From contig JAMJTW010000010.1 in assembly GCA_024281175.1 (NCBI GenBank), positions 36,976-100,975 on the forward strand: DNA of 64,000 bases, read 5' to 3'. Both the position numbers and the translations under genes were made by a program. This document shows positions 20,059-63,434 of the stretch, one piece after another (position 1 is the first letter of the stretch; each line of letters begins with the position of its first letter). This stretch comes from Candidatus Thiovulum imperiosus. GTDB lineage: Bacteria; Campylobacterota; Campylobacteria; Campylobacterales; Thiovulaceae. The notes under the pieces are model-generated. The model saw only the letters and a program-made list of their open reading frames with translations. It did no database searches and was not told where the DNA came from.

Positions 20059-20097
20059 CTTCACTTTCTTGTAAAATTTCAAAAAAGGATTTTTGAA

Positions 20098-20331
20098 ATG
20101 GAAAAAGAGGAAAATCTAGTAAAAAAAACTTGTCGAGAATTGGGGATTACTCAAAAAGAGTTAGCTGAAAGAATAGGGGTTACGGAAAAAACTATTAGCT
20201 CATGGGCTAGAGAAAAAGTTGAAATACCAAAAAACTTTCCAAGACTCATTGAGTTATTAAAAATAGAACTAAGCTACAAAGAGATATTACAAGCCATTAA
20301 CAGAACTTCAAATTTACAAATTATAATTTAA
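20098..20331 (+). CDS. XRE-family HTH regulator (HTH-Rha module copy 1)
   Basis: ATG at 20098; LVKKTCRELGITQKELAERIGVTEKTISSWAREKVEIP; near-identical N-termini at 32791 and 63141. Confidence 0.8.
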   Translation: MEKEENLVKKTCRELGITQKELAERIGVTEKTISSWAREKVEIPKNFPRLIELLKIELSYKEILQAINRTSNLQIII

Positions 20332-20362
20332 GTATTGTAAAAATTTACATTTTACTATACAA

Positions 20363-20417
20363 TTTCTCTAACCAAGTAGAAACTGCAATTTCTATTTGAA
20401 AATCTCGATTAGAGAAA
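20363..20417 (+). promoter_or_regulatory. Structured leader upstream of rha copy 1
   Basis: Outer stem TTTCTCTAA(20363-20371)/TTAGAGAAA(20409-20417); inner 10-bp hairpin CAAGTAGAAA-CTGCAA-TTTCTATTTG (20373-20398). Same architecture with a compensatory change at 63386-63434. Confidence 0.65.
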
Positions 20418-20420
20418 ATT

Positions 20421-20969
20421 ATGGAACCAAATTTTAACATACAACTTTTAGAAATTATCGATGATGAACCAAGAATTTCACATGTAATTATTGCTGAATA
20501 CACAAACAACAATCCTATTTCAGTTAGAAAACTCATTGATAAATACCATAGCAAAATGGAACTTTTTGGAAAGGTGTCATTTCAAATGACACCTATAAAA
20601 AACTCGAAAAATCGGGTTAATGAAGAAAAAACTTATTTCCTAAACGAACCTCAAGCAACTCTACTTTTAACTTTTTTGCGAAACAATGAAATTGTTGTAA
20701 AGTTCAAGGTTGATTTAGTCAAAGTGTTTTACGAAATGCGAATGAAACTTCACAACAACACTCCTGTTTCAAAACTCTCTCTTTCTGAAACTGTTTCGCA
20801 AACTCGTGAAGCTCTGGAACTCATAGACCTTTTGAAAGAGCGAAAAGGTTTTGATTTGTTACTTTTGGAAAAGATTTTGAAAGAGAATTCTCCAACAAAA
20901 CTTTTAGAAATTGACTTTTCCCAGAAATTCCAAAAGAGATTGGGAATCTCTCCAATTTGCAATCTTTAA
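20421..20969 (+). CDS. Rha-family phage regulatory/antirepressor protein (copy 1; C-terminus replaced at an LRR junction)
   Basis: 182 aa; ISHVIIAEYTNN...TYFLNEPQATLLLTFLRNNEIVVKFKVDLVKVFYEMR; usual tail (FLPTELG.LLGISPHEMNLLLEKKGF) replaced after LLEIDFSQ. Confidence 0.75.
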   Translation: MEPNFNIQLLEIIDDEPRISHVIIAEYTNNNPISVRKLIDKYHSKMELFGKVSFQMTPIKNSKNRVNEEKTYFLNEPQATLLLTFLRNNEIVVKFKVDLVKVFYEMRMKLHNNTPVSKLSLSETVSQTREALELIDLLKERKGFDLLLLEKILKENSPTKLLEIDFSQKFQKRLGISPICNL

Positions 20970-21274
20970 GTTTGGGTTCAAACCAAATCATAGAAATTCC
21001 AAAAGAGATTGGGAATCTCTCTAATTTGCAATTTTTGTGTTTGTCTCAAAACCAAATCATGGAACTTCCAAAAGAGATTGGAAATCTCACGAATTTGCAA
21101 TCTTTGAATTTGCAAGGAAGCCAAATCACGGAACTTCCCTCTTCAATTAATAACTTAAGAAGAGTTAATCGCTCTTACAGTGGAAGCAATTGGATTTCCC
21201 CCTCTTCCAACGAAACCCCTTTCCAATTTCTGAACAGAGCTTTAGGATTGCCAGAAAAGAAAAGTCTTGATTAA
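20957..21274 (+). CDS. Leucine-rich repeat protein fragment
   Basis: 105 aa; LPKEIGNLTNLQSLNLQGSQITELPSSINNL repeats; no N-terminal domain. Confidence 0.6.
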   Translation: MQSLSLGSNQIIEIPKEIGNLSNLQFLCLSQNQIMELPKEIGNLTNLQSLNLQGSQITELPSSINNLRRVNRSYSGSNWISPSSNETPFQFLNRALGLPEKKSLD

Positions 21275-32790: not shown

Positions 32791-33015
32791 ATGGAAAATA
32801 CTAATGAAAACTTAGTTAAAAAGACCTGCCGAGAACTCGGTATAACTCAAAAGGAGTTGGCAAATTTTTTCGGTGTATCTCAAAATACTATAACAACTTG
32901 GGGAAAAGGAAACTTAAATAAAGTTCAAGAAACAGCTTTAAATGGTTTAATATTCCAACACAGATATAACAACACGAAAAAATTACTAAGCGGTATTGTA
33001 AATCAAAATTATTGA
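32791..33015 (+). CDS. XRE-family HTH regulator (HTH-Rha module copy 2)
   Basis: NLVKKTCRELGITQKELANFFGVSQNTITTWGKGN. Confidence 0.8.
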   Translation: MENTNENLVKKTCRELGITQKELANFFGVSQNTITTWGKGNLNKVQETALNGLIFQHRYNNTKKLLSGIVNQNY

Positions 33016-33670
33016 CGACGAACCAAGAATTTCACATCGTGTAATTGCTGAACATACAAATAATCAGCAGAAAAATGTTGTCGAGCTTATTCAAAAATAC
33101 ATCGATAAATTCGAGCTTTTTGGAGCGGTTCCGTTTAAAACGGAAGTGCTAAAAGCTGGAAGGGGAACAACAAAAGCTAAAACTTATTTCCTAAACGAAC
33201 CTCAAGCCACTTTACTTTTAACCTTTTTACGAAACAATGAAATTGTTGTAGAGTTCAAAGTTGATTTAGTCAAAGTGTTTTACGAAATGCGAATGAAACT
33301 TCAAAACCATACCCCTTCTCAAAAACTCTCTCTTTCTGAAACTGTTGCCGAAACTGAAATTGCCTTAAAACTCATAGACCTTTTAAAAGAGAGCAAAGGT
33401 TTCGATTTGCTACTTTTGGAAAAGGTTTTGAAAGAGAGTTCACCAACAAAACTTTTAGAAATAGACTTTTCTCAAACCTACTTTCTTCCAACAGAACTCG
33501 GACAACTTCTTGGAATTTCTCCGCATGAAATGAACTTGCTTTTGGAGAAAAAAGGCTTCCAAGTTTCTAAGAACGGAGTTTGGAAAATTACAGAGAGTGG
33601 AAAAAGTTTTGGAATGGAGATTGGAGGAAAGTTTTCACAACTGAAATGGAGAGTAGATACAATTTTGTAA
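33009..33670 (+). pseudogene. Rha-family protein copy 2, start region deleted (first ATG 33146)
   Basis: Frame reads KIIDDEPRISHRVIAEHTNNQQKN...TYFLNEPQATLLLTFLRNNEIVVEFKVDLVKVFYEMR...FLPTELGQLLGISPHEMNLLLEKKGF; no start codon for the conserved N-terminus. Confidence 0.65.
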
Positions 33671-63110: not shown

Positions 63111-63140
63111 ATTTTTGTAAAATTTCAGAAAAGGATTTTT

Positions 63141-63365
63141 GTGGAGAAAGAAGAGAATTTAGTAAAGAAAACTTGCCGAGAATTGGGAATTACACAAAAA
63201 GAGTTGGCTGAAAAAACTGGATTTTCAGAAGATAGTATTTCTAAATGGAATAAAGGTGCAAAAATTCCTAAAAGTGCTGAAAATTTCTTTCATACTTTAA
63301 TAAGAATGGATAAATTTCAGCAAATGGAAAATCTGGTTAATCAGATTAAAACCTTGACTTTATAG
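63141..63365 (+). CDS. XRE-family HTH regulator (HTH-Rha module copy 3)
   Basis: GTG start; NLVKKTCRELGITQKELAEKTGFSEDSISKWNKGAKIP. Confidence 0.8.
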   Translation: MEKEENLVKKTCRELGITQKELAEKTGFSEDSISKWNKGAKIPKSAENFFHTLIRMDKFQQMENLVNQIKTLTL

Positions 63366-63385
63366 TATATATAAGATTATAATAG

Positions 63386-63434
63386 CTCCAAACAAGTAGA
63401 AACGGCTATTTCTATTTGTAAATCTTGATTGGAG
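63386..63434 (+). promoter_or_regulatory. Structured leader upstream of rha copy 3
   Basis: Outer stem CTCCAA(63386-63391)/TTGGAG(63429-63434); inner hairpin CAAGTAGAAA-CGGCTA-TTTCTATTTG (63393-63418). Confidence 0.65.

What the first reader, a model, noticed from the sequence alone, without database searches (positions are those of the whole stretch)
20363..20420. Covarying RNA leader that buries the rha ribosome-binding site
Seen: between HTH and rha, two copies share an inner 10-bp hairpin (CAAGTAGAAA-N6-TTTCTATTTG) enclosed by an outer stem. In copy 1 the outer stem contains CTCTAA/TTAGAG; in copy 3 (63386-63434) it is CTCCAA/TTGGAG. The U-A to C-G change is compensatory. The 3' strand of the outer stem is the purine-rich SD-like segment (TTAGAGAAA 4 nt before the copy 1 ATG; TTGGAG 10 nt before the copy 3 ATG). 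Inference: a translational switch controlling the antirepressor-like protein, possibly released by HTH or Rha binding.
Basis: partly seen in the sequence, partly recalled or inferred. Interest (0 to 1): 0.75.

Follow-up and report, generated by a model that had tools for sequence, protein, structure and literature searches.

The report
Promoter-straddling ribosome-site clamp on rha genes
In the sulfur bacterium Thiovulum, at least 22 copies of a small phage-regulator-type gene carry the same folding RNA switch, which seems to let the gene be translated only from messages that start at its own promoter and not from messages that run in from the gene upstream.

Summary
The structure is real and there are more than two copies. 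I found 22 members in three Thiovulum genomes: ten in the window's own genome, twelve in two relatives. Each has an almost invariant inner hairpin and an outer stem whose 3' strand is the Shine-Dalgarno (SD) sequence. The outer stem covaries at 7 of 9 pairs, so 'covarying RNA leader that buries the SD' is supported. The proposed trigger (HTH or Rha binding) is not: HTH recognition helices diverge while the hairpin does not, four members have no adjacent HTH, and one precedes an AntA protein instead of Rha. New point: the 5' strand of the masking stem (CTCC) lies between the -10 box and the predicted transcription start (A at the 7th base after the -10 in 21 of 22). RNA from the rha promoter should lack CUCC and leave the SD more open; RNA reading in from HTH carries it and is clamped. 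Computed SD-opening cost falls from 5.9 to 2.9 kcal/mol as the 5' end moves from -6 to -1. This is the logic of T4 gene e and I-TevI (PMC3014915, PMC2988022), here as a multicopy chromosomal family not in Rfam. The start site is predicted, not measured.

The parts
20098..20331 (+). HTH (Cro/CI-type) gene upstream of copy 1; its transcript can run on into rha
   Evidence: Pfam HTH_3 E 5.8e-08; stop codon 26 nt before the -10; no terminator-like site between HTH and rha
20335..20363 (+). rha promoter, copy 1: TTGTAA-17-TACAAT (-10 at 20358-20363)
   Evidence: aligned with 21 other members
20366..20371 (+). 5' strand of outer stem (CTCTAA); CTCT lies at -4 to -1, predicted start of transcription is A20370
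20373..20398 (+). inner hairpin CAAGTAGAAA-CTGCAA-TTTCTATTTG (10 pairs, one G-U)
20409..20417 (+). 3' strand of outer stem TTAGAG plus AAA: the SD segment of rha copy 1
20421..20969 (+). rha copy 1 (182 aa)
   Evidence: Pfam Phage_pRha E 4.6e-14
63141..63365 (+). HTH gene upstream of copy 3
   Evidence: Pfam HTH_3 E 2e-06
63354..63383 (+). rha promoter, copy 3: TTGACT-18-TATAAT, 11 of 12 consensus matches
63386..63434 (+). leader of copy 3: CTCCAA 63386-63391, inner hairpin 63393-63418, TTGGAG (SD) 63429-63434; predicted start of transcription A63390
63444..64000 (+). rha copy 3, runs to the window and contig end
   Evidence: Pfam Phage_pRha E 1.6e-13

Best explanation
A promoter-straddling SD clamp. 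The outer stem pairs the promoter's discriminator bases (CTCC, -4 to -1) with the SD of the same gene (GGAG). Messages that begin upstream, at the HTH promoter or beyond, contain both strands: the inner hairpin brings them together, the SD is paired and rha is poorly translated. Messages that begin at the rha promoter start at the A after CTCC, lack the 5' strand and leave the SD more open. Rha/Ant regulators are thus made only when their own promoter fires, probably when the local HTH repressor lets go, and not by read-through. Shown here: structure, covariation, fixed promoter geometry, no terminator-like site between HTH and rha in copies 1 and 3, computed unmasking. Inferred: the transcription start, the read-through, weak translation of read-through RNA, and HTH as repressor of the rha promoter.
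For: 22 members with A at the 7th base after the -10 in 21. Outer stem: 7 of 9 pairs changed on both sides, covariation score 0.298 against 0.119 shuffled and at most 0.149 when slid; the pairs inside the discriminator covary (CTCC/GGAG, CTCT/AGAG, CCTT/AAGG types). The discriminator pairs better with its own SD block than with those of other loci (2 of 20,000 permutations reach it). SD-opening cost about 5.9 kcal/mol with the 5' arm, 2.9 without; the drop lies between 5' ends -6 and -1 and is flat from -1 to +4; paired test p 4e-5. Replacing the discriminator with those of other loci or random hexamers lowers masking (6.3 to 4.9 and 3.5 kcal/mol). HTH gene directly upstream in 18 of 22, stop 8-37 nt before the -10. 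The same arrangement is established for T4 gene e and I-TevI.
Against: No start site is mapped; if RNA began 4-6 nt earlier, own-promoter RNA would be clamped too. No read-through RNA has been seen. A few members (G001:C49, G000:C2, G000:C10d) mask poorly, and in G000:C14a and G004:890k the computed own-promoter RNA is no more open than the read-through RNA. Four members have no adjacent HTH gene. The model does not explain why the inner hairpin sequence is nearly invariant. Shuffle and permutation tests do not fully correct for relatedness, and alignment A2 was laid out by hand on the structure.
Confidence: 0.68

Rival explanations
1. The whole leader, CUCC included, is in the rha mRNA and is a conventional switch: a protein (Rha, HTH or a host RNA-binding protein), a small RNA or temperature opens or closes the outer stem. 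The invariant inner hairpin would be the recognition site.
For: Covariation and SD burial; inner hairpin sequence conserved beyond what pairing needs, 91-92%; strong fold in the full leader.
Against: The -10 is only 2-3 nt before CTCC in most members, so RNA made from this promoter should start after it. HTH recognition helices diverge; one member precedes AntA without a Rha domain.
Confidence: 0.18
2. DNA operator: the inverted repeats around the start site are bound as duplex DNA by the HTH protein or Rha, repressing the promoter.
For: Lies at about -6 to +45, where repressors act; an HTH gene is next door in 18 of 22.
Against: Arm-to-arm length varies from 45 to 53 nt; the inner repeat keeps a G-T mismatch in 19 of 21 distinct members, harmless in RNA but a broken palindrome in DNA; HTH recognition helices diverge while the repeat does not; four members lack an adjacent HTH; the 3' arm coincides with the SD in nearly all.
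Confidence: 0.08
3. 5'-terminal stabiliser: in own-promoter RNA the hairpin starts within a few bases of +1 and shields the 5' end from decay; SD overlap is secondary.
For: Hairpin begins within about 4 nt of the predicted start; several rha copies without this leader have other hairpins near their predicted start.
Against: Does not explain covariation of bases upstream of the predicted start. It could act together with the clamp.
Confidence: 0.06

Closest known systems
Phage T4 gene e (lysozyme) and soc leaders
   Same: Long upstream-initiated RNA folds over the RBS; RNA from the promoter next to the gene lacks the 5' strand and is translated (PMC3014915; soc named in PMC2988022).
   Different: T4 uses a late promoter (TATAAATA) and a hairpin in a lytic phage; here a sigma-70 type -10, a two-tier stem with an invariant inner hairpin, and at least 22 chromosomal copies before Rha/Ant genes. 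T4 start sites are mapped, these are not.
T4 I-TevI, I-TevII, I-TevIII, segB and Aeh1 mobE leaders
   Same: RBS hidden in read-through RNA of a gene whose own promoter is placed so that its RNA lacks part of the hairpin (PMC2988022).
   Different: Homing endonucleases in phages; I-TevI also represses its own promoter. No sequence relation seen.
IS10/IS50 protection against transcription from outside
   Same: From my own knowledge: the inverted repeat at the element end hides the transposase RBS only in RNA entering from outside.
   Different: Transposons with terminal repeats; no paper on this was found in the library.
P22 sar and P1/P7 c4 control of ant
   Same: RNA-level block of antirepressor translation (PMC12197685).
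   Different: Antisense RNAs acting on ant mRNA; here the pairing partner is in the same RNA. The Rfam scan of the window gave no match.

Membership tests
Promoter-dependent SD masking (T4 gene e / I-TevI type) | RNA stem pairs the SD in upstream-initiated RNA | tested here: met
   Computed: mean P(SD unpaired) 0.10, opening cost about 5.9 kcal/mol; stem supported by covariation
Promoter-dependent SD masking (T4 gene e / I-TevI type) | The gene's own promoter lies so that its RNA lacks the 5' strand of the stem | tested here: inconclusive
   -10 and A at the 7th base in 21 of 22 predict it; start not mapped
Promoter-dependent SD masking (T4 gene e / I-TevI type) | Upstream same-strand transcription unit without terminator in between | tested here: met
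   HTH gene 8-37 nt before the -10 in 18 of 22; no terminator-like site in copies 1 and 3; not met as regards HTH for the four T5orf172-type members
Promoter-dependent SD masking (T4 gene e / I-TevI type) | Read-through RNA is poorly translated, own-promoter RNA well | not testable with these tools
   needs reporter or ribosome data
Known RNA family (Rfam 15) | Match above a family's gathering score | tested here: not met
   no match in the window
HTH-bound DNA operator | Repeat sequence follows the recognition helix of the neighbouring HTH | tested here: not met
   recognition helix 27% pairwise identity, inner repeat 91-92%

The most novel reading that the evidence does not exclude
A chromosomal multicopy regulatory RNA family in which promoter discriminator and SD co-evolve by base pairing, locus by locus, so that the many Rha/Ant regulators of Thiovulum are insulated from read-through, with the invariant inner hairpin read by a shared trans factor that adds a second, common control over all copies.
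Probability: 0.25. Interest if true: 0.75.

Novelty: new variant of a known kind. Interest (0 to 1): 0.52.

Why it matters
It would extend a mechanism known from a few T4-type phage genes to a dispersed family in a bacterial chromosome, show discriminator bases of a promoter under selection for pairing with the ribosome site of the same gene, and explain how tandem HTH-rha modules can multiply without being switched on by neighbouring transcription. It also hints that the little-studied Rha proteins need to be kept tightly off.

Tried and rejected
Rfam scan of the window: nothing. Exact 26-nt pattern in 2.9 million viral contigs: none; in GTDB contigs: Ca. Thiovulum stygium and one Fischerella hit without the outer stem or a gene directly behind it. 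Covariance model over 398 genomes of the order: strong hits only in three Thiovulum genomes; the six hits in other genomes (E 0.0009-0.01) lie in coding or unrelated sequence and were set aside as chance. The G170/G192 'GTAGAAACTGCC' sites are the same stretch of a repeated, apparently coding element, not leaders. Viral Rha loci (38 of the 80 fetched) searched with the model: none. Terminator reading rejected: no T run after the hairpin. MAFFT alignment A1 put the outer arms out of register, so RNAalifold saw only the inner stem; a gap-free, structure-based layout (A2) was used for the counts. No paper on Rha in Thiovulum was found.

Full report
What was checked. The two leaders are in the sequence as described and fold better than shuffled sequence (z -4.2 and -3.3). 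The window is part of contig C10 of a 2.2-Mb assembly.

How many. The pattern and a Pfam Rha search found leaders upstream of many rha paralogues. A covariance model built from 19 of them added three more in the window's genome, E 1.6e-11 to 4.8e-8. Total 22: ten in G000, six in G001 and six in G004. Among 398 genomes of the order there is no other strong match, none in viral contigs by exact pattern, and none among 38 viral Rha loci. Most members precede a Rha protein; four precede a Rha-T5orf172/MUG113 type protein, one an AntA protein and one a broken gene.

Anatomy. Reading 5' to 3': a -10 hexamer (TATAAT or close), usually 2-3 variable bases, CTCC, AATC, inner hairpin CAAGTAGAAA-loop-TTTCTATTTG, a spacer of about 8-12 bases, ATTGGAG, a short gap, start codon. 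Upstream of the -10, conservation falls to 0.34-0.37 pairwise identity, against 0.86 in the -10 itself. Some promoters have a TTGACT -35 (433k, C10c, C17), others a TG one base before the -10; the -35 signal over all members is modest.

Covariation. In a gap-free layout of the arms (A2) the outer stem forms standard pairs in 83.6% of cells, 7 of 9 pairs show changes on both sides, and the covariation score is 0.298 against 0.119 in shuffles and 0.149 or less when the partner strand is slid. The inner stem has 3 pairs with changes on both sides, among them A-U to G-C in two members, and a G-U pair kept in 19 of 21. Types of outer stem include CTCCAA/TTGGAG, CTCTAA/TTAGAG, CCTTAAATC/GAATTAAGG (9 of 9 pairs), TCAGTC/GACTGA and CTCCAAAC/GTTTGGAG. 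Duplex energies are better for a locus's own two arms than for arms of different loci (0 of 20,000 permutations for the full arm, 2 of 20,000 for the six bases before the predicted start). These tests do not remove relatedness, but the changes fall in several distinct lineages of the gene.

The promoter point. In 21 of 22 members the 7th base after the -10 is A, and CTCC or its covarying counterpart is just before it. By established sigma-70 rules RNA should start there. The covarying bases of the outer stem are thus upstream of the predicted start; selection for their pairing makes most sense in RNA that comes from further upstream. An HTH gene on the same strand ends 8-37 nt before the -10 in 18 of 22, and in copies 1 and 3 nothing like a terminator lies between HTH and rha. 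Presence of this leader and of an adjacent HTH gene go together (18 of 22 against 4 of 12 rha copies without the leader, Fisher p 0.008; not corrected for relatedness).

Computed effect. Mean SD-opening cost is 5.9-6.7 kcal/mol for RNAs that begin at -60 to -6, falls stepwise to 2.96 at -1, and stays at 2.93 through +3. Mean P(SD unpaired) goes from 0.10 to 0.40. Swapping in the discriminators of other loci or random hexamers weakens the mask (6.3 to 4.9 and 3.5 kcal/mol). The effect is an average: it is absent or reversed in C14a and 890k, and masking is weak in C49, C2 and C10d.

Interpretation. This matches the established T4 cases: gene e, where longer early RNAs hide the RBS and late RNAs lack the 5' strand (PMC3014915), and I-TevI and its like (PMC2988022). 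I therefore take the leader as a promoter-straddling SD clamp that insulates Rha/Ant regulators from read-through. Shown: anatomy, covariation, geometry, computed unmasking. Inferred: start site, read-through, translational effect, HTH as repressor of the rha promoter.

Against HTH or Rha as the ligand. HTH helix 1 and helix 2 average 52-58% pairwise identity but the recognition helix 27%, whereas the inner hairpin arms stay at 91-92%: proteins with different reading heads are unlikely to read one fixed site. Four members lack an adjacent HTH, and AntA replaces Rha in one. What keeps the inner hairpin sequence fixed is open: a shared factor, exchange between copies, or the need for CAAG to pair with both UUUG (inner) and CUUG (outer) are possible.

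Noticed in passing
window about 33000-33300: Copy 2 of HTH-rha has no leader and no rha start codon: the HTH stop lies 16 nt before the Rha domain, as if promoter, leader and start had been deleted.
   Followed up: partly
L098 2707-2900 (G004:C1:301.7k): The leader precedes an AntA-domain protein of 83 aa instead of Rha, with a similar N-terminal stretch (MDSNITTNLIEL).
   Followed up: partly
L132, L138, L144, L096: Four paralogues in the window's genome are Rha-T5orf172/MUG113 (GIY-YIG-like) type proteins with TTCC/GGAA-type or CTCCAAAC/GTTTGGAG outer stems and no HTH directly upstream.
   Followed up: partly
L076, L081, L095, L071, L066: rha copies without this leader have other, unrelated hairpins beginning near the predicted transcription start, some with short stems over their SD.
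   Followed up: no
window 20421-21274: rha copy 1 stops at 182 aa and a leucine-rich-repeat ORF follows in another frame (20957-21274), perhaps a frameshifted tail.
   Followed up: no
window 20065-20100 and 63115-63145: HTH genes share a conserved upstream stretch TGTAAAATTTCA followed by AAAAGGA, likely their own promoter and SD.
   Followed up: no
L111 4102-5360 (G004:C1:288k-289k): Two tandem HTH-leader-rha modules share nearly identical HTH and promoter DNA but carry different rha genes, which suggests recombination between modules.
   Followed up: no
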